From an uncultured cyanobacterium (GTDB taxonomy: Bacteria > Cyanobacteriota > Cyanobacteriia > Cyanobacteriales > Nostocaceae), in NCBI GenBank assembly GCA_903848645.1, contig CAINGU010000043.1, positions 1 through 64,000 of the forward strand: a stretch of 64,000 nt of DNA. The letters run 5' to 3'. The position numbers and the translations under genes are program-made. The notes under the pieces are model-generated. The model saw only the letters and a list, made by a program, of their open reading frames with translations, did not search any database and had not been told where the DNA came from. The stretch's first letter is position 1. Every line of letters starts with the position of its first letter. Below, piece after piece: positions 7,589 through 24,553 of the stretch.

Positions 7589-10003
7589 CTATTCAAATCG
7601 CTGATTAGTTTGTGACCAACGTTGCAGACTATAGCCCTGTTTATTTTCTACCAGTAACGCTAGAGATTGGTCATCAGTAAGTTGAGCGATCGCTATTAGC
7701 GTTTGCTGGTTTGCACGGGCAAAATCACTATAAATTACTTTGCTATCCGCCGATAAAATCAAAGTCCGAGGACGTTTTTCCCGTTCTCCTAGCTTGGAGT
7801 TATTACCATCGGACTGATTTAAAGATGCTATAGCTGTAGTAGAAATAGTCAGGACAATCTCCTGCTGTTGATCATTAGTTAAATCGGCCAACTGAACTGG
7901 CCAATCAGCCATTTTTTCGCGCATTTCCTGTAAATTAGGAATAGGATTAGCAGTAATATCACCCGACTGTTGTAAAGTTCGCCAGATGGTCGGCAGCATT
8001 GACTCTACCAATTGGGGTTTTTGTTGATATAAATCTTTTATAGATATCGGTGAAGGTTCTACCCATTTCAAAGCATCCACTGTCAGGGCTAAAGGTTCAG
8101 GTTGGAGAGACTTAACCTGACTTTCAGGAAGTGAAGAGCCAGCAACTAACAGGCTTAAACCTTGATCATGAACTTGTACAGCTTTAATAGTAGCAGTAGT
8201 AACTTCTTGTTCTCCATTAGGTTTCCAGACAATAATTTGCATACTTGGGTCAGAACTAATACCCAAAATTTTTCGCCAAAATTGTCGAGGTTGATTCTTC
8301 AGTTGGTCAAAATTAGTAAACGGATAACGTAACCAGTTTGTACCATCTTGAAATGCACTAACTTCCACCTGATACCAAACTTGATGATTAGTAATTTTCA
8401 AATCAGTTTGCAGAGATATTGGCAACCAATCCGACTGATTAATCTGACTAATTTGGTGTACAGTCCCAATAATCCGACTTTTATGATCATTAATTGTATC
8501 ATCATCAAGTTTAGTTAAAAGACCTTGAATATAGTTCAATGTTTCCGCGTCAATATTTGGTTGTGCTTGCAACCAAGCATTAGTTCTTTCTTCCCCCCGT
8601 TGGACTTTAAAAATTAGTGCTACCCAAGCTAAAACCGCCCGACGATTGGGATTGAGTCGCAAAGCTACAGCAGCACGATTCCAAATTCTCCCTTTATCAG
8701 TTTGTAGTAAATTAGCAATTTCTTCAGCATAACCAGGTGAAGTTTCAAATACCTGTAAAGCCTTTTCCCAACGACCATCAATAATATCTGCTGTCACTTG
8801 TTGATTAGGACTCGCCCAACTTTTTTCAGCTTGACTTTTCGTTAATTCCGAATGTAACCGAATTACATCTATTTGTGCCTGTGCTGCTGCTGAAAAAGGC
8901 TGTTTCCGCTGTTTCTCTAGAGATTTTAACCATGTAAAAGCAGGAGTCCAGAGTCCATTTCTAGCTAATAATAGAGATTGTTGAAAAGCAAATTCATTAA
9001 CTGCGGGTTTCTGGAAATTAATCGCTTCTAAATAAATAGAATTAGCAACTAACTGACTAGATTTGACTTGATAGACTTGCAAATTTGGTTCTATATCCAC
9101 CGTTTGATCAATAATTAACTCTTTTGTATCATTACCCGTTATCTGTTGCCATTTAGGTAATTGCCCGTTACGGGTTTTCCAAAGCAACATCTGTTGTAAG
9201 CTTTTTAAAGTAGGATTATAATGGGCAATTTGACCATAGATAATATTATCTTTCTCCTTTTTGTGTTCACCCTGCAAATAAAACCAAAATCCAGGTGCTA
9301 GATTAGCATCTGCAAAAGCTTTCACCTTAGTTAAAGGTAAATGTAACTTTGCTTCCTGATTATCTGAGTCAGAAATGGCTGCAACTGAAGGAGACTCTAT
9401 AAAAGTTTTTGATAGACCAATAATAGGCAATTTGGTAATTAAATAGTAATATTTTTCTGACTGAAATTTATATTCTAAATCTTGGGAAAGTTGATAAATC
9501 CTCAGTTCTACCAATTCTTGACAATTAGATTGACAATTAGTCCGTTTTTGGAAAATTGGTAATAAAAAAGAATCTTCTGACTTACCATCTAAAGGCATAA
9601 TTTCGCCAGCTAGACGTTGTTTTTGAGTTAAACTGAGTTGAATAGCTGGGAATGTTTGGGGTATTTCCCGCTTACCTGTAGAGATTTTTGCCCATTTTGG
9701 TAAATATTCATTCATCCAACTAACCTGTGCGGGGTTGAAGATAAATAAAACACTAATCCAACCAAAACCAATAATTGCACCAGCAATGCTAAACAAGAGA
9801 CTCAGCGCTAAAGTAGAGGATAACCAACTTCGCCACTGAGAAGGTTGTGACGTTTTTTTAACATTCTTCTTTGTGACACTTTGAGAAGCCTGATTCAGCT
9901 TAGTAGCTTTTGGTCTGCGTTTGCGGGGTTTATTCGTCATCTGACTAGCACTAGCACTGGTAATTTGAGGTTGTTCAAAATCATCAATGATAGATTTTGA
10001 CAA
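7589..10003 (-). CDS. Large single-pass membrane protein of unknown function
   Basis: The 804-residue product has a basic, disordered N-terminus (about 1-55, with RKRRPKATK), one strong transmembrane segment (about 58-90) and a long soluble region predicted outside the cytoplasmic membrane. The soluble part includes a stretch (about 350-480) of helices with TPR-like spacing, including ALQVFETSPGYAEEIANLL and AVALRLNPNRRAVLAWVAL. I recognise no catalytic motif. It is probably a conserved cyanobacterial envelope or scaffold protein; that is inference from layout. It is transcribed alone, convergent with the small gene to its left, and preceded by a repeat-rich gap. Confidence 0.75.
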   Translation of the reverse strand: MSKSIIDDFEQPQITSASASQMTNKPRKRRPKATKLNQASQSVTKKNVKKTSQPSQWRSWLSSTLALSLLFSIAGAIIGFGWISVLFIFNPAQVSWMNEYLPKWAKISTGKREIPQTFPAIQLSLTQKQRLAGEIMPLDGKSEDSFLLPIFQKRTNCQSNCQELVELRIYQLSQDLEYKFQSEKYYYLITKLPIIGLSKTFIESPSVAAISDSDNQEAKLHLPLTKVKAFADANLAPGFWFYLQGEHKKEKDNIIYGQIAHYNPTLKSLQQMLLWKTRNGQLPKWQQITGNDTKELIIDQTVDIEPNLQVYQVKSSQLVANSIYLEAINFQKPAVNEFAFQQSLLLARNGLWTPAFTWLKSLEKQRKQPFSAAAQAQIDVIRLHSELTKSQAEKSWASPNQQVTADIIDGRWEKALQVFETSPGYAEEIANLLQTDKGRIWNRAAVALRLNPNRRAVLAWVALIFKVQRGEERTNAWLQAQPNIDAETLNYIQGLLTKLDDDTINDHKSRIIGTVHQISQINQSDWLPISLQTDLKITNHQVWYQVEVSAFQDGTNWLRYPFTNFDQLKNQPRQFWRKILGISSDPSMQIIVWKPNGEQEVTTATIKAVQVHDQGLSLLVAGSSLPESQVKSLQPEPLALTVDALKWVEPSPISIKDLYQQKPQLVESMLPTIWRTLQQSGDITANPIPNLQEMREKMADWPVQLADLTNDQQQEIVLTISTTAIASLNQSDGNNSKLGEREKRPRTLILSADSKVIYSDFARANQQTLIAIAQLTDDQSLALLVENKQGYSLQRWSQTNQRFE

Positions 10004-16847: not shown

Positions 16848-16981
16848 AGGATTCTGACAATTAAATTAGTTGCTAAAATTGCGGTTTACCTGTAGAACAG
16901 TTAGAAAATTTAGGTGCTGCGTTGTTTAACATTTCCGAAGTGGCTGACTTAGTAAGTTGGTTAAATCAACAAAATCATTAG
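16848..16981 (+). pseudogene. C-terminal remnant of a DUF4351 protein
   Basis: From 16880 the frame reads CGLPVEQLENLGAALFNISE and on through VADLVSWLNQQNH to a stop at 16981. This matches the C-terminal pattern of DUF4351, usually found on Rpn-type PD-(D/E)XK nuclease-like proteins. Just upstream, LVAKI is readable in another frame; adding one base at about 16880 would join them as LVAKIGGLPVE, so the fragment also carries a frameshift. No start or N-terminal part remains. Confidence 0.6.
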
Positions 16982-16998
16982 AATTAATAATTTGTGGT

Positions 16999-17018
16999 GT
17001 TGGGTTAAGAAACCCAAC
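16999..17018. terminator. Palindrome GTTGGGTT...AACCCAAC between convergent genes
   Basis: An 8-bp stem with a short loop lies six bases before the DUF2085 gene stop, between it and the folB/DUF4351 side. It could serve as a bidirectional terminator, but a T-tract is weak. A related single arm appears at 38045-38054. Confidence 0.4.
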
Positions 17019-17023
17019 CTACT

Positions 17024-17524
17024 TTATAACCTACGAAAATGCAAAATTGGCATAGTAAATAAACCCCAAGCCAAACCCGTAATCAAACCAAAAGGAGTAA
17101 CAATATAATTATTAAAATCCCATAAACCAAAAATCTGCGCTGCTAACTCCAAAGGATAAGCCATCATTAACACACTAGCAACAGCCGCACCAGTCCAACC
17201 ATATTGACTTAACCAAAAAACGCCTTTTCCATTAGTTAAACCATACAAAATCCGAGTTATCAATAAACCTGACACCGTTCCATAACAGCGCATACAAACC
17301 GCCATAATAAAAGGTGGAGATAACTCCAAACCCATAGTAGGCTGCGGACATACATGATTACCCATAAAGTAAATAATGTCCGCAATCCCCGGAAGCAAAA
17401 ACACAGCAGACGCAGCCAAAAAAGGAGCAAGAGGGGGACCAAAAACCATCCCAGCTAACAGGAAATCAGCAAAAAAACTTACCCAATTAAACTGTAACCC
17501 TCTTGACAAAACCACCCTTTGCAT
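17024..17524 (-). CDS. DUF2085 domain membrane protein
   Basis: The 166-residue product has about four hydrophobic segments (about 17-35, 38-52, 80-96 and 107-130). It carries the DUF2085 signature: a Cys in NHVCPQP (about 58) and the pair in MAVCMRCYG (about 77-80). The paired cysteines suggest metal or redox binding in the membrane; the family function is unknown. The gene lies 50 bp downstream of argZ/agrE on the same strand. The spacer holds a tandem repeat of TTTGCGCC units (17526-17560), so cotranscription is possible. Confidence 0.85.
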   Translation of the reverse strand: MQRVVLSRGLQFNWVSFFADFLLAGMVFGPPLAPFLAASAVFLLPGIADIIYFMGNHVCPQPTMGLELSPPFIMAVCMRCYGTVSGLLITRILYGLTNGKGVFWLSQYGWTGAAVASVLMMAYPLELAAQIFGLWDFNNYIVTPFGLITGLAWGLFTMPILHFRRL

Positions 17525-17525
17525 C

Positions 17526-17560
17526 TTTCTTCCTTTGCGCCTTTGCGCCTTTGCGCCTTT
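17526..17560. repeat. Tandem TTTGCGCC-type repeats
   Basis: Three to four copies of a 9-bp unit (CTTTGCGCC) fill the short gap before the DUF2085 start. This is typical of short tandem repeats in filamentous cyanobacteria. Confidence 0.75.
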
Positions 17561-17574
17561 GCGTGAGATATTCC

Positions 17575-19686
17575 TTAACCTACATTAGCAACATAAGGAC
17601 TCGTCAACTTATCCAATTGCTGAGTTAACAGACTGAGGAATAAACCCACATCAGTCACCACACCTACAGATTCTATTGAACCGCGATCGCTCAATTTTGT
17701 CACCACAGCCGGATTAATATCCACACAAACCATCTTCACACCCGCAGGAGTCATATTCCCCACCCCAATAGAATGCAGCATAGAAGACAACATCAAAATC
17801 ATATCCGCACCTTGGATGATTTGGGAATATTCCTGTTGTGCTAAAATCAAGTTCATTTGGGTATCTGGTAAAGGACCATCATCCCGAATTGAACCAGCGA
17901 GGGAAAAGGGAATGTTATTTTTCACACATTCATACATGACCCCACTTTTTACTACTCCCGCTTCTACAGCTTTAGCAATGCTACCAAAACGGCGGACAGT
18001 GTTAATTACCTTCAAATGATGTCGGTGTCCACCACGCACAGCCACACCCCGCTTCATATCCACACCTAGGGATGTTCCTAGCAGGTTTTGTTCCATGTCA
18101 TGAACAGCGATCGCATTTCCGCCTAAAAGTCCCTGTACATAGCCTTCTCGAACCAAGCGACAGAGATGTTCACCACCACCTGTATGAATCACCACTGGAC
18201 CTGCTGTGACAACTACTTTACCGCCACTATCCTTAATTTTACGTAATTCCCAAGCCACTTGTTCCACGACTAATTCCACCCGTCTTTCGCTGGAAACACC
18301 AGAAGACATAAAGCTGAATTCTTGAGAGTTGCGTTGTTCGCGTGATTCGGCTTTGCGGACGGTGCGGATACCAAAGACATCAACAACTACTTTATCGCCA
18401 ATTTCTAAATCACGGAGGAGTTTGCATTTTGCTACTATACCATTGGCAGTTTGCGAAATAGCGATCGCTCCATCCATGCGTTGATTTTGGACTTTTAGCC
18501 ATTCTCCATTTACCCGGATTTCAGTGGGATAAATCGTGCTGACATAGAAATCATCGGGAGCTACACCCGCTTGAATTACAGGTTCTAACCTAGTATCTCG
18601 TTCATCTTGGGGTAAATCAACCGCACCCAAATCAATCAATTGGGAGATGATTTCTTCCATCACATCGTGAGATGGTGCAGATACCCTCACTTCAGCCGCA
18701 GATGTACTTTGACGTTGTTCTCCCAAGTTGAATTTGAGAACTTGGAAACTTCCCCCCATTTCCACAATTAAATCTAAAGCGCGGTTAATTAAACCTGCAT
18801 CTAAAAGGTGTCCTTCCATGCGAATGACACGGCTTTCTACAGATACATTAGCGTGAATTTCCTCGCCAATAGGTTCTGTCACCCGCAAAGTCAAGCATTT
18901 AGCCGCACCACCAGCTTTGAGGAATTCGGTTAACGGTGTTTCAATGACTTGAAAACCAACTTCTGCTAACCGTGATTTTAAACTCTCACTGGTTTTGTTC
19001 ATAATCACGATGCTTTCCACATTCACCGCATTACAAGCAAAGTTAACAGCATCAGCTTCTTCAATAGCAATCCGCTTTTCTGGTGCGACGCGCATTTCAA
19101 TGACGCGGTTGGAGTAGGAATCAAACGCACCGGGATAATACAGCAAATAACCATTTGCTAAAGGACAAAAACAGGTATCCAGGTGATAAAAACGCTCATC
19201 CATCAACCGCAGAGAAATCACCTCAATGTCTAGCCATTTAGCCAGGTAGGGGTGAGAATCTAATTCTGACCGAAAACCATATCCAGCCCATAACCACCGC
19301 CCTTCTCGGTCTAGGAGTGCGTCACCAGCACCTTCAAAGGGGAGGTCTTTGGGAAGAGTGTAAACATTAAAACCATTTTGTTCAAACCACTGTTGAAAAT
19401 ACGGTTCTTCTCCTTGACGTTCTTTATGTAAAAAACGGCTGAGAACGACGTTTTCACCGAGGACTAAACCCGCATTGGCACTGAATACCATATCAGGCCA
19501 GCCTTTTTCGGGGGCAACTAAATCAACAATGGCGTGATCTTTAATAACATGGTATAATTTATTCCATTGTTCCACAGCGCGATCGCGTGAGGACTTATGA
19601 ATATTCCCTTCCATCCAAGGATTAATCACATAATCCACATCATAATGGTCAGGAGCGCACATCAAAAAACGAATTTGGGAAACCAT
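17575..19686 (-). CDS. argZ: Bifunctional arginine dihydrolase / LOR-SDH domain protein
   Basis: The N-terminal half is an amidinotransferase-fold arginine dihydrolase that, in characterised cyanobacterial homologues (ArgZ, AgrE), turns arginine into ornithine, CO2 and two ammonium. Key residues stand at the reported ArgZ positions: Asn71 (FSANAG), Glu118 (FEGAGD), His168 (FYHLD) and the nucleophile Cys264 (GGAAKCLTL). The C-terminal half (about 280-703) is the LOR/SDH-like domain with a Rossmann-type region; in Anabaena AgrE it yields proline from ornithine. At 703 residues it is full length. It mobilises nitrogen from arginine or cyanophycin, together with the agmatinase-family gene nearby. 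The symbol agrE is equally used. Confidence 0.93.
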   Translation of the reverse strand: MVSQIRFLMCAPDHYDVDYVINPWMEGNIHKSSRDRAVEQWNKLYHVIKDHAIVDLVAPEKGWPDMVFSANAGLVLGENVVLSRFLHKERQGEEPYFQQWFEQNGFNVYTLPKDLPFEGAGDALLDREGRWLWAGYGFRSELDSHPYLAKWLDIEVISLRLMDERFYHLDTCFCPLANGYLLYYPGAFDSYSNRVIEMRVAPEKRIAIEEADAVNFACNAVNVESIVIMNKTSESLKSRLAEVGFQVIETPLTEFLKAGGAAKCLTLRVTEPIGEEIHANVSVESRVIRMEGHLLDAGLINRALDLIVEMGGSFQVLKFNLGEQRQSTSAAEVRVSAPSHDVMEEIISQLIDLGAVDLPQDERDTRLEPVIQAGVAPDDFYVSTIYPTEIRVNGEWLKVQNQRMDGAIAISQTANGIVAKCKLLRDLEIGDKVVVDVFGIRTVRKAESREQRNSQEFSFMSSGVSSERRVELVVEQVAWELRKIKDSGGKVVVTAGPVVIHTGGGEHLCRLVREGYVQGLLGGNAIAVHDMEQNLLGTSLGVDMKRGVAVRGGHRHHLKVINTVRRFGSIAKAVEAGVVKSGVMYECVKNNIPFSLAGSIRDDGPLPDTQMNLILAQQEYSQIIQGADMILMLSSMLHSIGVGNMTPAGVKMVCVDINPAVVTKLSDRGSIESVGVVTDVGLFLSLLTQQLDKLTSPYVANVG

Positions 19687-19958
19687 AAAAATTTTACGAA
19701 CTTCTAAAATGCTACTAATGTCTTCTGGATACAGAGTTTTGGTGATCCAATTCTGTCAAATCTGCTACTTAACCTCTACCTTTTGTTCTTGGTAGGCTTT
19801 ACAAGGATATCGTTATTATTCTATTACTACTAGGGACAATGTGAGCGGTAGGAGGGAAATGGTTCTGTTTGAATGCAATATTAACTTGTTAATTGATGGG
19901 TGATTCTGATTATTGGCTTAACTTGCTCTACAATAATTAAATTATGGAGTTTTCTATT

Positions 19959-20201
19959 ATGCCCCCTACACTAAAAGCAATCTATCGTAACGGCACATTC
20001 ATTTTGGAAACAGCCTGTAATTTACCTGAAGGTTCTGAGGTGGAATTACTCATTCAATCAAGTTCTATTGTTTCACCTCCTATTTCCGATGTAGAAAGTA
20101 AACAACGTTTTCTCAAATCTCTAATTTCACGAATGCAGCAAAATCCGATTCCATTAAATGCACCTCGTTTCACACGGGAGATGCTGCATGAACGCTGTTA
20201 A
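19959..20201 (+). CDS. Antitoxin of the DUF104/AF2212-like family
   Basis: The 80-residue product starts MPPTLKAIYRNGTFILE, the hallmark N-terminus of this antitoxin family, with LPEGSEVELLIQ next (about 24-35) and a C-terminal helix region that normally binds the toxin. The ATG at 19959 has GGAG nine bases upstream; an ATG at 19944 lacks one. In intact loci a VapC-type PIN toxin follows with an overlapping start. Here the overlapping toxin frame stops after 18 codons, so the antitoxin is orphaned. Confidence 0.78.
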   Translation: MPPTLKAIYRNGTFILETACNLPEGSEVELLIQSSSIVSPPISDVESKQRFLKSLISRMQQNPIPLNAPRFTREMLHERC

Positions 20202-20244
20202 TACTAAAATGGTATTTTCTATTTGGAATATAGGCGAAAAATGA
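20188..20244 (+). pseudogene. Truncated VapC/PIN toxin stump
   Basis: An ATG inside the antitoxin end (14-bp overlap) opens the frame MNAVNTKMVFSIWNIGEK and then stops. Its first residues resemble the MNAVDTNVL start of PIN-domain toxins, which normally follow this antitoxin. The catalytic Asp at residue 5 reads Asn here. The TGA overlaps the ATG of the AAA gene (ATGA at 20241-20244), so ribosomes could pass from antitoxin to stump to ATPase. Confidence 0.6.
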
Positions 20245-21671
20245 AAATCAAATTCTCAAACTTAGGTAGTATTCAAGAAACAGAGTTAGATTTGCGTCCT
20301 TTAACAGTAATTATTGGACCGAATAATTCAAATAAAACCTATATTGCCTATTCTACCTACGGTTTGTGGCAGCGTGCTAGAAGCAGTCTAAGCTTACGAC
20401 GTGATAATAAATCAGAACTAGAACTTAAGCCCGAAGAACACGATAGGTGGTCGCTTAAAATAGATCATAACTTGCTTGATTTTTTTATCAGAGATATTGA
20501 AAAAACAGCAAAACGTTTTGGAGAAGACAAATATTTTGGTGTACAACAATTTTTTCAGGATTCAAGTCGTAAACTTTTCTCGACAACATCATTTGAAATG
20601 ATAATTTCTCAACAAGAAGTAGAAGATGCTATCAATCAATTAATTCATAAAGATGCTATTCCTCTGACAGATGAAATTTCTCTTAAACTTACTCGTAAAG
20701 AGGATGTTTTATTCTTTGAAATTCAACCTAAAAATGAAGAACTAAGTAAAAATCAAACATTACATTTTACCAATAGATTTATCTCTAGTGTTGCAGAAGT
20801 GCTTTTTTCTAATATTTTTCCATTTCCTGCTGAACGAAATGCGTTTATAAATATATATAAAATATTGGAAACTAAAAGATATAGAATTCTTAAACAAAAA
20901 CAAAGAGAGTCATTTATCAACAGTACCTCTGAAGAGAAATTTGGCTTACCTCAACCGCTAATAGCAATAGATATCCGTTATCCACAACCAGTAGAAGATT
21001 TTTTAGATTTTCTATCTGAAATAGAACTTCAAGAAACAACCAAGATTAATTCAAGCAATAAAAACGAATTTCAGAAATTAGCAGATGAGATTGAAAAACA
21101 GCTACAAAACAAAAATAAAACTAATTTAAAACCTACTAAGCTAGGTGGAAAAGAAATAAAAGTTTTAGTTAAAAAAGGTTTAGAAATTGATCTATATAAT
21201 GCTTCATCTTCTATCAGGCAACTTGCACCATTGCTGTTATATTTAAGATATCGTGCAAGTAAAGGTGATTTTCTGGTAATAGATGAACCAGAGATGAACT
21301 TACACCCAGAATCACAAGCAAAGCTGCTGGAAGCATTATCTATTCTGGTTAATCTTGGTGTGAGAATTTTACTCACTACCCATAGTCCATATATTATGGC
21401 ACATTTGAATAATTTAGTTAATGGTAATCATGAAAATCCTGAAATATTAAAACGTCAATCTTCATCTTTATATCTTCAAGATGAAAGAGCATTTTTACCT
21501 ATAGATAAAGTTAGTGCGTATGAAATGAAAGATAATAAATTAGTCTCATTAAATGATCCAGATTATGGTATAAGATGGGATACCTTAAGTGATGTTTCTG
21601 TAGATATTCAACAAAAGTTTTTTCAAATTTATGAAGCAGGACAAGAAAAAGCAGATGAAACAGAAGATTAA
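20241..21671 (+). CDS. AAA/ABC-type ATPase of a two-gene nuclease cassette
   Basis: The 476-residue product (ATG at 20241; an earlier TTG is less likely) is an SMC/OLD-like AAA protein. The Walker A is IIGPNNSNKT (24-33), where Asn replaces the Gly before Lys. A PAERNAF motif lies near 197. The signature-like NASSSIRQLAPL is near 320, Walker B FLVIDEPEMNLHPE near 343-356 and the switch His in LTTHSPYIM near 380. Such ATPases partner with nucleases in many antiphage systems (for example OLD, Gabija, PARIS, Septu). The downstream gene overlaps it by 17 bp and has a PD-(D/E)XK-like motif. Cassette function is inferred. Confidence 0.82.
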   Translation: MKIKFSNLGSIQETELDLRPLTVIIGPNNSNKTYIAYSTYGLWQRARSSLSLRRDNKSELELKPEEHDRWSLKIDHNLLDFFIRDIEKTAKRFGEDKYFGVQQFFQDSSRKLFSTTSFEMIISQQEVEDAINQLIHKDAIPLTDEISLKLTRKEDVLFFEIQPKNEELSKNQTLHFTNRFISSVAEVLFSNIFPFPAERNAFINIYKILETKRYRILKQKQRESFINSTSEEKFGLPQPLIAIDIRYPQPVEDFLDFLSEIELQETTKINSSNKNEFQKLADEIEKQLQNKNKTNLKPTKLGGKEIKVLVKKGLEIDLYNASSSIRQLAPLLLYLRYRASKGDFLVIDEPEMNLHPESQAKLLEALSILVNLGVRILLTTHSPYIMAHLNNLVNGNHENPEILKRQSSSLYLQDERAFLPIDKVSAYEMKDNKLVSLNDPDYGIRWDTLSDVSVDIQQKFFQIYEAGQEKADETED

Positions 21672-22545
21672 TCCTGCTCAAATTCTCAAAGACAAAAAAG
21701 ATAAACTTGATTGGCAAAATTTTAACTTTCTAGAAAATCTCCTAGTGTTTTGTACAGTACCAGGAAGAAGTGTTCCTAAAGAAAGTGGAGTACATTTTAG
21801 AATAACGTTAGATTTTCAAAATCAAGCTGTATGTATTTTATTTGAAATAGATAGAAGGAATGATCCTCTTATCAAGAATCAAGCATTAAAACGTCCAGAT
21901 TATATGTCTCTTTATATTGATTGTACTTCTTGTATTTGCACAATTATTGAAATGAAAGGGAAGAATCACAACTCTTTAGAAAATGGAATTGAACAAATTT
22001 TAAAGTTGAAAGAAATTTTACAAAATGAAATATCTGATCATTTACCTAGCAAACTAAAAGTTAAATATCAAGGAATTTTATTGACTCCCTATAATTCACA
22101 AATTCCATTTAAAAAAATAGCGGAGTTAGCTTCAAGTGGTTTTATTATTTTACCTATTCAATATGATCATAAAGCTGAATTATATCCTTATGTTTCAAAG
22201 CCAAATAAGATAACAGACAAATATAACCATCAAGAAATTACTGAATCAATGGCTTTATTGATTGAAGAGATTTTAACAAAAATAGCATTACCAAAACGTA
22301 TGGAAGATGACTATTATTCCAGCAATTTTGTAATTGAGAAGGATAGAAAAGGGATTTATATTAATTATTTATTACCAGATGTAACAGATTATATAACTTT
22401 ATTGTCGAATACAAAATTTACTGAAATTAATATAGAGGAAAATGAATATAAGGAAAAAATCAAAGCTGAATTAGAATTACTTAATCTAATAAATAAATTA
22501 GCAATAAAGTTCTCACATAGGCAAATATCAGAGTCTAATAACTAA
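21655..22545 (+). CDS. Putative PD-(D/E)XK nuclease partner of the AAA ATPase
   Basis: The 296-residue product starts at 21655 inside the ATPase gene (an ATG at 21631 is also possible; AGGA lies 13 bases before 21655). It contains RPDYMSLYI with Asp82, a strand TIIEMKG with Glu99 and Lys101, and a following helix with Gln near 114. This is the PD-x(n)-ExK-Q arrangement of restriction-like nucleases. The rest is unlike anything I recognise. There is no membrane segment. The overlap with the ATPase implies translational coupling and a working pair. Low-GC, Lys/Ile-rich codon use sets both genes apart from the housekeeping neighbours. The nuclease assignment is by motif only. Confidence 0.68.
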   Translation: MKQKINPAQILKDKKDKLDWQNFNFLENLLVFCTVPGRSVPKESGVHFRITLDFQNQAVCILFEIDRRNDPLIKNQALKRPDYMSLYIDCTSCICTIIEMKGKNHNSLENGIEQILKLKEILQNEISDHLPSKLKVKYQGILLTPYNSQIPFKKIAELASSGFIILPIQYDHKAELYPYVSKPNKITDKYNHQEITESMALLIEEILTKIALPKRMEDDYYSSNFVIEKDRKGIYINYLLPDVTDYITLLSNTKFTEINIEENEYKEKIKAELELLNLINKLAIKFSHRQISESNN

Positions 22546-22574
22546 CTTGTCTATTATACAATCAAACAAGTAAT

Positions 22575-22601
22575 GGTGGGTTACTCTGTTGCTAACCCAC
22601 C
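22575..22601. terminator. Palindrome GGTGGGTTA...TAACCCACC between convergent genes
   Basis: A 9-bp stem with a 9-base loop sits between the nuclease gene (plus) and the peroxiredoxin gene (minus). It is a likely bidirectional terminator built from a dispersed repeat. Confidence 0.5.
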
Positions 22602-22636
22602 CTACAATAGAAAGCAATATTTGCTGTTATGAAAAC

Positions 22637-23275
22637 TTACTTGTTAGGTTGAGGAGTCATCCGCAAATAAGGTTTAATTTCTGCATAACCTTTAGGAAAC
22701 TTGGCTTTGAGGACTTCAGGATCTTTCAAAGATGGTACAATCACCACATCTTCACCATCTTTCCAGTCTGCGGGAGTAGCAACGCTGTAATTATCGGTTA
22801 ATTGCAGAGAATCAATGACGCGCAAGATTTCATCAAAGTTGCGTCCAGTGCTGGGAGGATAGGTAAAAGAAAGACGGAGTTTTTTATTGTTGTCAATAAT
22901 GAAAACTGAACGCACGGTAACAGTAGCCGCTGCGTTGGGGTGAATCATATCATAAAGTTCGGAAACCTTACGATCTGGATCTGCTAAAATTGGGTAATTG
23001 AGAGTGGTGCTTTGGGTTTCTTCAATATCCCCCACCCAGCCATTGTGAGATTCTACATCATCAACGCTGAGAGCGATCGCTTTCACATTGCGTTTATCAA
23101 ATTCTGGTTTTAGTTTGGCAACTGTACCTAGTTCGGTGGTGCAAACTGGTGTAAAGTCAGCAGGGTGAGAGAATAGCACTACCCAGCTATCACCAGCCCA
23201 GGCGTAAAAGTCAATTTCCCCATGGGTAGAGGCTTGGGTAAAATTAGGTACTGTATCACCAAGACGAAGAGTCAT
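22637..23275 (-). CDS. 1-Cys peroxiredoxin (Prx6 type)
   Basis: This enzyme reduces hydroperoxides through a single peroxidatic cysteine. The 212-residue product has the active-site motif HPADFTPVCTTELG with Cys45 and the supporting Arg in TVRSVFIID. It contains no other cysteine, which supports the 1-Cys class. The C-terminal extension with VIVPSLKDPE and the KGYAEIKPYLRMTPQP end is typical of the Prx6 group. It is cytoplasmic, transcribed alone, and converges on the nuclease gene. Confidence 0.95.
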   Translation of the reverse strand: MTLRLGDTVPNFTQASTHGEIDFYAWAGDSWVVLFSHPADFTPVCTTELGTVAKLKPEFDKRNVKAIALSVDDVESHNGWVGDIEETQSTTLNYPILADPDRKVSELYDMIHPNAAATVTVRSVFIIDNNKKLRLSFTYPPSTGRNFDEILRVIDSLQLTDNYSVATPADWKDGEDVVIVPSLKDPEVLKAKFPKGYAEIKPYLRMTPQPNK

Positions 23276-23383
23276 GCAAGATTCCCTGTATTCTAAAAAG
23301 ACATTTATATTCTACCGTGACATTATGACACAAAAGACCGATTATCCTATCGGGCTGTCGCGGTTTGCAACAAAATTTTAAGT

Positions 23384-24553
23384 TTATGGAGAAATTATCT
23401 CTTGATATGCTTGAATCATTTGCAGGGCGATCGCATCCCAGCTAAAATGTTGTAAAGCGTATTTTCGGGCATTTAATCCCCGGCGTTGAAGTTCTTCTGA
23501 ATTTGCCAAAGCTATTTTTAATAAATCCACAATTGAATTAATATCTGTAGTTCCCACCCAACCAGACTCACTATCTATCACTTGCTGATATATATGCACT
23601 TGGTCAGAAATAACCACAGGTGTTCCTGTTACCATGGCTTCAGCGACAGCAATACCAAAATTTTCGTAATAAGAAGGTAACACAAATAAATCCGCAGCTT
23701 GCAACAAACTTCTTTTCGCTTCTCCCGTGACAAAACCTGTAATTGTTGTTTGGGAATTTAAAGATGAATTAGCAATTTGTGATTTAATTTTCTCTTCATA
23801 AATTGGATCTTGAGGATTTGTCCCTGCTAAAACAAAATGAAAATCTAAACCTGCTATTAATAATTTTTCTAATGCCGGAATCAACAATTCTAAACCTTTT
23901 TTAGGATCAATGCGAGACATAAATAAAATCACAGGTTTATGACTAGGAATATGCCATTGATTAACTAAATCACTGCTATTTTCTAGGGGAGGAATCACAC
24001 CCAAAGGAATTACTAAATCTTTTGTAGTTACTCCAAATCTGTTGGAGATTTTGGACTCTTGTGCGCTAGTAAAATGAATTGCTGCTGCACTTGCTAAATT
24101 ACCACGTTCTATCAGTTGAACATAAAGCTGTTTTAATTGTTTTTTCTTCTGTAAATCAGCAGGGTCTAGAGTTCCTAAAGGACGTAAAATATAAGGTAAT
24201 TTCTGTTGACGACAGACTATCGCTGCTGCACTACTAACAGGAGAAAATAAAGCATGAATATGGGCAATATCAAATTCGTCAGCGTGTTTTTTTAACCATT
24301 TTAATAAATCCAGAGAAAACTTATATCTGCGAAATGGTGAACAACGAAAATAAATTATTTCATAACCATCTTGTTTGATTGGCTGATTTAAAGGCACATT
24401 CAGGGGTTTTTGTCCAGAATCACCATTACTATCGGTGGTGAGAATAGTAACTTCTACACCTGCTTCTACCAATGCTGGGGCTAATCCTAATACCATTTGA
24501 CTAGGACCACCATAAATCAGAGAAATTGAGGGGAGAATTTGGAGAATTTTCAT
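23384..24553 (-). CDS. Glycosyltransferase family 4 protein
   Basis: The 389-residue product is a GT-B glycosyltransferase. It has the N-terminal GGPSQMVLGLAPALVEAG (about 16-33), the donor-phosphate lysine region FMSRIDPKKGLELL (about 211-224) and the E-x7-E motif in PSYYENFGIAVAEAMVTGTPVV (about 294-315). It transfers a sugar from a nucleotide donor, probably in the assembly of an envelope polysaccharide, at the cytoplasmic face. It is the last gene of a minus-strand run of glycosyltransferases, six bp after the preceding gene, so the two are cotranscribed. Confidence 0.9.
   Translation of the reverse strand: MKILQILPSISLIYGGPSQMVLGLAPALVEAGVEVTILTTDSNGDSGQKPLNVPLNQPIKQDGYEIIYFRCSPFRRYKFSLDLLKWLKKHADEFDIAHIHALFSPVSSAAAIVCRQQKLPYILRPLGTLDPADLQKKKQLKQLYVQLIERGNLASAAAIHFTSAQESKISNRFGVTTKDLVIPLGVIPPLENSSDLVNQWHIPSHKPVILFMSRIDPKKGLELLIPALEKLLIAGLDFHFVLAGTNPQDPIYEEKIKSQIANSSLNSQTTITGFVTGEAKRSLLQAADLFVLPSYYENFGIAVAEAMVTGTPVVISDQVHIYQQVIDSESGWVGTTDINSIVDLLKIALANSEELQRRGLNARKYALQHFSWDAIALQMIQAYQEIISP

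What the first reader, a model, noticed from the sequence alone, without database searches (positions are those of the whole stretch)
19959..22545. AAA ATPase plus PD-(D/E)XK-like nuclease cassette coupled behind a broken toxin-antitoxin locus
Seen: an antitoxin gene, an 18-codon toxin stump starting MNAVNTK, an AAA ATPase whose ATG overlaps the stump stop (ATGA), and a second gene overlapping the ATPase by 17 bp with RPD...EMK...Q. Known: ATPase-nuclease pairs (OLD, Gabija, PARIS, Septu) are antiphage systems, and defence genes often land in toxin loci. Inferred: this is a two-gene defence-like module that replaced a PIN toxin and may borrow its translation and antitoxin-linked expression. 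The odd Walker A (GPNNSNKT) and the unrecognised nuclease make it unlike the systems I can name.
Basis: partly seen in the sequence, partly recalled or inferred. Interest (0 to 1): 0.72.

Follow-up and report, generated by a model that had tools for sequence, protein, structure and literature searches.

The report
Cyanobacterial ATPase-nuclease phage-defence gene pair
A cyanobacterium carries a two-gene pair, an ATP-driven probable sensor and a probable nucleic-acid-cutting enzyme, that resembles known anti-virus systems but has a different second protein and a sensor segment that strains appear to exchange.

Summary
The pair is a real unit: A and B were found in the same 9 of 386 sampled cyanobacterial genomes. 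B has no accepted family match and does not resemble PD-T4-4_B, but keeps an invariant RPD-x16-E-x-K motif; it is probably a distinct nuclease. Only about 20 nt of the 'stump' are toxin; the rest is A's own leader. The site beside argZ holds other, often defence-type, cargo in relatives without AB. TA neighbours recur but are not needed. Unexpected: A residues 46-243 are hypervariable (55% against 91% identity), yet near-identical between some species about 11% apart in argZ, which suggests exchange by recombination. No structure could be predicted. Best reading: an abortive-infection sensor-effector pair, a new variant of a known kind.

The parts
19959..20201 (+). AF2212-like antitoxin gene (80 aa), intact; its PIN toxin partner is lost here
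   Evidence: of 9 full-length copies one (L019) has an internal stop
20188..20244 (+). 18-codon chimeric ORF: about 20188-20207 toxin-derived, the rest up to 20240 the AB module's own leader
20241..21671 (+). gene A: OLD-type ABC ATPase, 476 aa; Walker A GPNNSNKT, Walker B FLVIDEPE, H-loop TTHSPY; PD-T4-4_A-like
20376..20969 (+). hypervariable segment of A (residues 46-243), near-identical between some distant strains
21655..22545 (+). gene B: 296-aa putative PD-(D/E)XK-type nuclease without a known family
21892..21957 (+). B motif R80-P-D82 ... E99-M-K101; Q114 follows
17575..19686 (-). left flank of the cargo site: argZ, bifunctional arginine dihydrolase/ornithine cyclodeaminase
22637..23275 (-). 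right flank of the cargo site: peroxiredoxin gene

Best explanation
AB is a two-gene, abortive-infection type anti-phage system of the PD-T4-4/WonAB class. Shown here: A is a full-length PD-T4-4_A-like OLD-type ABC ATPase; B is a protein without a known family whose D, E, K and Q residues are invariant, in the order of a PD-(D/E)XK site; A and B were found only together wherever both were searched at the stated cut-offs; the site carries other defence-type genes in relatives; A's middle segment is hypervariable and shared as near-identical alleles. Inferred: an A dimer holds B inactive, the variable segment of A recognises a phage product or phage-induced state, an ATP-dependent change licenses B, and B cuts a nucleic acid (an rRNA or tRNA, as proposed for WonB, or DNA), stopping growth before phage is released. 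The TA remnant upstream is left over from earlier cargo at the same site; since AB's native upstream region is replaced by it here, AB may now be read from the antitoxin's promoter, but this is incidental to the system.
For: A vs PADLOC: PD-T4-4_A 5e-63 over residues 1-458, PDC-M47A 5e-49; AriA 2e-27, Old 1e-14, PtuA 2e-11, GajA 8e-11. Distant A relatives on plasmids (33 records) have a following gene of 176-210 aa in 8 of 8 loci read; 5 of those 8 partners were scanned and all 5 match PD-T4-4_B, best E-values 1e-12 to 6e-108. Pairing: B in 9 of 386 phylum genomes (E<=0.01) and A in the same 9 (E<=1e-40) (only the top 4-6 candidates per genome were scored); in the 15 of 217 family genomes with B, A or its remains lie directly upstream in all 15 (G066 is a remnant, G044 has an assembly gap in A; a second B fragment in G046 was not examined). 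Constraint: median pairwise dN/dS 0.36 (A) and 0.31 (B), 78 pairs each. Site: in the 6 same-genus genomes without AB, PD-T7-3 (2e-47, G055), a 79%-identical fragment of it (G056), GmrSD (G052), a weak HEPN match plus PIN_3/HicB (G054), an AAA-like protein (G053), an A remnant (G047). WonAB: both genes needed, growth arrest, translation stop (PMC12137116). D-to-[D/E] spacing of 17 as in B occurs in 6 of 8 plasmid partner proteins (four of the six are close relatives).
Against: No phage assay exists for this family. B's fold was not predicted (job interrupted; tool off). B has no profile match to PD-T4-4_B (hhalign probability 0.4%; 0.1-0.2%), and its weak hits are to unrelated or uninformative families (E=0.0014 to an NCBIfam methyltransferase model, 18.3 bits against a cut-off of 188; MrcB_N E=0.008 in 1 of 12 members; PHROG of unknown function E=0.013 for L078). 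So 'nuclease' rests on four invariant residues. In 7 of 13 homologues, the window included, the Walker A glycine before Lys is Asn, which could impair ATP binding. Some relatives are broken: L020 has a stop in B, L030 is a remnant, L059 keeps about 100 bp of A.
Confidence: 0.7

Rival explanations
1. Coupled hybrid: AB took over the TA operon, and the antitoxin controls its transcription and translation as a functional part of the system.
For: The same toxin/leader junction in 6 loci (window, L017, L019, L021, L027, L028), the 57-nt ORF open in each, no terminator-like site in 19680-22640. Junctions of three different cargoes lie 6, 9 and 16 nt past the antitoxin stop (by eye). TA-type neighbours recur: AB lies inside a HicB-like gene in L025, next to a divergent PhdYefM/ParE pair in L029, and a distant A homologue lies behind a Txe/YoeB pair in L088.
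Against: L018, L020 and L023 have no ORF of 40 aa or more between argZ and A and L078 has no TA upstream; A carries its own leader in 12 of 14 loci; the antitoxin has an internal stop in L019 and is partly deleted in L021; in L024/L026 the TA remnant before A has lost its start codon while AB is intact; the L029 pair is on the other strand.
Confidence: 0.12
2. AB is itself a toxin-antitoxin pair: B a toxic nuclease, A its neutraliser, kept by addiction rather than by phage defence.
For: Tight pairing and overlap; WonB is toxic when overproduced (PMC12137116).
Against: In WonAB the toxicity needs WonA, which argues against simple neutralisation; a hypervariable segment whose identity does not track B's identity (Spearman -0.17, p=0.17) fits sensing better than binding of B.
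Confidence: 0.08
3. A decaying passenger: the pair is no longer active here (Asn in Walker A, native upstream region lost).
For: Asn for Gly in Walker A; remnants in G066, G047 and on a second contig of G046; AB's native upstream region is replaced by the TA remnant; no promoter-like site on the + strand between 19680 and A's start (a scan at chance level).
Against: Both ORFs are intact; dN/dS about 0.3-0.4; K32, T33, D348, E349 and H381 are invariant in 12 aligned A sequences; the Asn form occurs in 7 of 13 homologues.
Confidence: 0.1

Closest known systems
PD-T4-4 (Vassallo et al. 2022, E. coli; PMC9519451, passages seen)
   Same: Full-length PD-T4-4_A match; same gene order, ATPase then second gene; equal D-x16-[DE]-x-K spacing in 6 of 8 plasmid partner proteins
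   Different: B is 296 aa, the 8 partners read are 176-210 aa; B matches no PD-T4-4_B model or profile; chromosomal site in cyanobacteria
[quoted passage not shown] cholerae; PMC12137116)
   Same: OLD-type ABC ATPase with a PD-(D/E)xK-type partner in a two-gene operon; [quoted passage not shown]
   Different: WonB is 16.1 kDa, B is 296 aa; the WonA/WonB sequences were not fetched, so homology to them was not tested
PDC-M47 (PADLOC candidate)
   Same: A matches PDC-M47A over residues 1-456, E=5e-49
   Different: B matches no PDC-M47B model
PARIS, Septu, Gabija, OLD
   Same: OLD/AAA_15-type ATPase
   Different: Much weaker scores; B matches none of their models

Membership tests
PD-T4-4 | ATPase component matches PD-T4-4_A over its length | tested here: met
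   E=5e-63, residues 1-458 of 476
PD-T4-4 | second component matches PD-T4-4_B | tested here: not met
   no PADLOC model at E<=10 for the window's B or any of 12 members; hhalign probability 0.4% and 0.1-0.2%
PD-T4-4 | A directly followed by the second gene | tested here: met
   15 of 15 family genomes with B, one a remnant; also L078
PD-T4-4 | anti-phage activity | not testable with these tools
   needs plaque assays
WonAB | OLD-type ABC ATPase motifs (Walker A, Walker B, H-loop) | tested here: met
   K32, T33, D348, E349, H381 invariant in 12 sequences; the Walker A glycine is Asn or Ser in 8 of 13
WonAB | partner has a PD-(D/E)xK nuclease fold | tested here: inconclusive
   D82, E99, K101, Q114 invariant; no fold prediction, no profile match
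WonAB | sequence homology to WonA and WonB | not tested
   the sequences were not fetched
PARIS (AriAB) | AriB-type partner | tested here: not met
   B does not match AriB
Gabija / Septu / OLD | GajB helicase, PtuB HNH, or fused TOPRIM (recalled definitions) | tested here: not met
   A shows only AAA_15/AAA_21 above cut-off, and B matches no such model

The most novel reading that the evidence does not exclude
A carries an exchangeable recognition cassette: strains of Dolichospermum/Aphanizomenon-type cyanobacteria swap a roughly 600-1000-bp sensor segment between conserved ATPase ends by recombination, giving a population-level repertoire of phage specificities (as HsdS does for type I restriction), coupled to a nuclease family not yet described.
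Probability: 0.35. Interest if true: 0.68.

Novelty: new variant of a known kind. Interest (0 to 1): 0.47.

Why it matters
The trigger of WonAB was unknown in the papers seen. A natural set of alleles, conserved in ATPase core and second gene but differing in one segment, points to that segment as the probable sensor and makes the question directly testable by allele swaps. B adds a candidate effector family that the searched family libraries do not recognise. The site beside argZ gives a compact natural list of further defence candidates in bloom-forming cyanobacteria.

Tried and rejected
Rejected: B as PD-T4-4_B. Rejected: the odd Walker A as a unique feature. Rejected: TA linkage as part of the system's definition. 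Considered and not claimed: positive selection on the variable segment; pN/pS there is about 0.7-0.8 in the worst windows, below 1, at high divergence. Considered: chimeric assembly as the cause of the 1,001-bp identical tract between G046 and G057; the G057 contig is a short node of coverage 0.96 by its title, so this pair alone is weak. Considered: that the flanks rather than the segment were replaced; that would also be recombination, but the segment would then not be what moved.

Led nowhere: plasmid and phage tblastn of B (no match); viral contigs gave one contig with a decayed copy; promoter scans were at chance (13 found, 15.0 expected; 1 found, 1.2 expected). Papers: PMC12137116 passages and sections 7-9 seen; PMC9519451, PMC10952713 and PMC12409358 passages only; the ABC-ATPase classification paper (PMC7544218) is not held and is known only as cited. 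No title or abstract start in the listings reports this B family or a defence hotspot beside argZ; these searches cover open-licence PMC only, and the listed papers were not read for it.

Full report
What is there. The coordinates in the finding are exact. An intact 80-aa AF2212-like antitoxin gene (19959-20201) is followed by an 18-codon ORF (20188-20244), an ATPase gene A (20241-21671, 476 aa) and gene B (21655-22545, 296 aa). A matches AAA_15 and AAA_21. B has no match above a curated cut-off in Pfam or NCBIfam, none in PADLOC, none in PHROGs for the window's protein, and only chance-level PDB sequence hits. Weak hits that I set aside: NCBIfam methyltransferase model E=0.0014 (18.3 bits, cut-off 188), MrcB_N E=0.008 in 1 of 12 members, a PHROG of unknown function E=0.013 for the L078 homologue.

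The pair. B homologues were found in 15 of 217 family genomes, own genome included. Fourteen wider regions were fetched, and in each A or its remains lie immediately upstream of B; L030 (G066) is a remnant, L021 (G044) has an assembly gap in A. A second, short B match in G046 (L016) was not examined for A. In 386 genomes drawn from the phylum, B was found in 9 (E<=0.01) and A in the same 9 (E<=1e-40). Two of the 9 are from another family. In one (L078) the pair lies between an adenylosuccinate lyase gene and a DDE transposase gene, with no TA gene seen. B was not found in the plasmid or phage collections. The named relatives are Dolichospermum, Anabaena, Aphanizomenon and Trichormus.

What class it is. 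A is a full-length match to PD-T4-4_A (E=5e-63) and PDC-M47A (5e-49), far above AriA, Old, PtuA and GajA. Relatives of A on plasmids (33 records) have a gene of 176-210 aa next to them in 8 of 8 loci read (the L064 ATPase is a 233-aa C-terminal half), and the 5 scanned all match PD-T4-4_B. The best-studied member of the wider class that I found is WonAB of Vibrio cholerae: both genes are needed, infection is aborted by growth arrest, and translation stops; the authors suggest rRNA or tRNA as target (PMC12137116, sections 7-9). [quoted passage not shown] B fits that phrase. Profile comparison of B with PD-T4-4_B gives no similarity, but D82, E99, K101 and Q114 are invariant in 12 sequences and in the L078 homologue (53% identity), and the D-to-E spacing of 17 equals that of 6 of 8 plasmid partner proteins, four of which are close relatives. 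The motif shape alone occurs in 3.4% of shuffles. That the surrounding beta-alpha pattern looks like a PD-(D/E)XK core is my reading of the sequence, from no call. Structure prediction failed or was switched off.

The TA remnant. At the same place, relatives L026/L036 and L056 hold the same antitoxin followed by an intact PIN gene (133 aa in L036, PF01850 above cut-off; similar ORF in L056 not scanned). In the window the toxin sequence stops after about 20 nt; what follows is A's own leader, which 12 of 14 loci have (all but L022 and L025), including L018, L020, L023 and L030, which lack this TA. The same junction occurs in 6 loci, and in decayed form in L024 and L026, so one event probably explains all. 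Two other genomes lost the same toxin to other cargo after 23 nt (L055) and 30 nt (L057) (by eye). All three junctions fall 6-16 nt past the antitoxin stop. In L025 AB sits inside a HicB-like gene, codons 1-38 before A and 58-97 after B; that gene is intact in L055, L056 and L060, and its 3' part lies behind B in L021, L023, L027 and L028. L029, at another site, has a PhdYefM/ParE pair on the other strand just before A. So TA genes are frequent neighbours, of different kinds and orientations; L018, L020 and L023 have no ORF of 40 aa or more between argZ and A.

The site. Of 14 fetched AB regions, 13 have argZ (named by NCBIfam) on the left; L029 does not. Eight of 14 also have the peroxiredoxin gene within the fetched stretch on the right, as do 3 of 6 regions without AB (L055, L056, L058). 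Of 16 same-genus genomes, 10 have AB here. The other six hold: antitoxin + a weak HEPN match (E=2e-5, below cut-off) + PIN_3 + HicB (G054); antitoxin/PIN + PD-T7-3 (2e-47) (G055); antitoxin + a 72-aa fragment 79% identical to that PD-T7-3 protein (G056); GmrSD (G052); an 810-aa AAA-like protein, matches below cut-off (G053); a short A remnant (G047). L026, L027 and L028 carry behind AB a PtuA/AriA-like ATPase (L036 copy scanned, L027 copy 98% identical), in L027 and L028 with a partner that weakly matches AriB (L028 copy: AriAB 4e-11, AriB 7e-5); L024 and L026 carry a Schlafen-AlbA_2 gene before A, L022 a DUF4145-HEAT gene. I call this a defence hotspot.

The variable segment. Over 13 A proteins, residues 46-243 average 55% identity, the rest 91%; B averages 78.5%. 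The segment holds variable stretches around a conserved PAERNAF motif. At DNA level, in 13 loci and 78 pairs, the segment is bimodal: five pairs at 94-100%, the next at 82%, mean 71%. The top pairs are not close relatives: G046/G057 are 100% identical here but 81.9% in B and 88.9% in argZ; G044/G000 99.7%, 90.5%, 89.4%; G045/G051 98.0%, 89.0%, 88.7%. The ATPase ends of these pairs are also somewhat above average (94-98% against means of 92-93%), so the shared tract is wider than the segment, and for G045/G051 the drop begins only at B. G046 and G057 share a 1,001-bp run without a mismatch from 109 nt into A; at 11% divergence this is about 1e-51 by my arithmetic. Against this: G057 is a fragmentary low-coverage assembly, so that pair could be a chimera. 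Segment identity does not track B identity (Spearman -0.17, p=0.17), whereas core identity does (0.57) (pairs are not independent). The natural reading is exchange by recombination. That the segment recognises phage is inference.

Selection. Median pairwise dN/dS is 0.36 for A and 0.31 for B, above the cruder pN/pS of 0.07 for argZ (10 genomes) but below 1: the genes appear to be maintained and to evolve fast.

Verdict. An abortive-infection type ATPase-nuclease pair of the PD-T4-4/WonAB class with a distinct second protein; a new variant of a known kind. The most interesting point, the exchangeable segment of A, was not in the finding.

Noticed in passing
17540-23385 and loci L017-L030, L055-L060: The site beside argZ is a cargo hotspot carrying PD-T7-3, GmrSD, PtuA/AriA-like, AlbA_2, weak-HEPN and TA genes in different genomes.
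   Followed up: partly
16883-17029: 147-bp sequence found up to three times near this site in relatives (87-91%), with 3 weaker copies elsewhere in the own genome.
   Followed up: partly
L025:6493-6606 and 8938-9057: AB lies inside a HicB-like gene, codons 1-38 before A and 58-97 after B; codons 39-57 are missing.
   Followed up: yes
L077:1653-2582: A contig filed as viral (IMGVR_UViG_3300019122_000810) has a copy of A lacking about residues 38-207, that is most of the variable segment, and only a B fragment; a KilA-N gene lies nearby.
   Followed up: partly
L088:1407-4419: On an Enterococcus plasmid a distant A homologue with a 176-aa partner (D..ELK motif) lies just behind a Txe/YoeB TA pair.
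   Followed up: no
L029:5772-6409: A PhdYefM/ParE pair lies on the other strand just upstream of AB at the one AB site not beside argZ.
   Followed up: partly
L055:1160-1280, L057:1160-1280: Toxin gene breakpoints with unrelated cargo cluster within 10 nt just past the antitoxin stop; cause unknown.
   Followed up: partly
L060:1056-3488: 810-aa AAA-like protein without a match above cut-off at the hotspot; candidate unknown defence gene.
   Followed up: no
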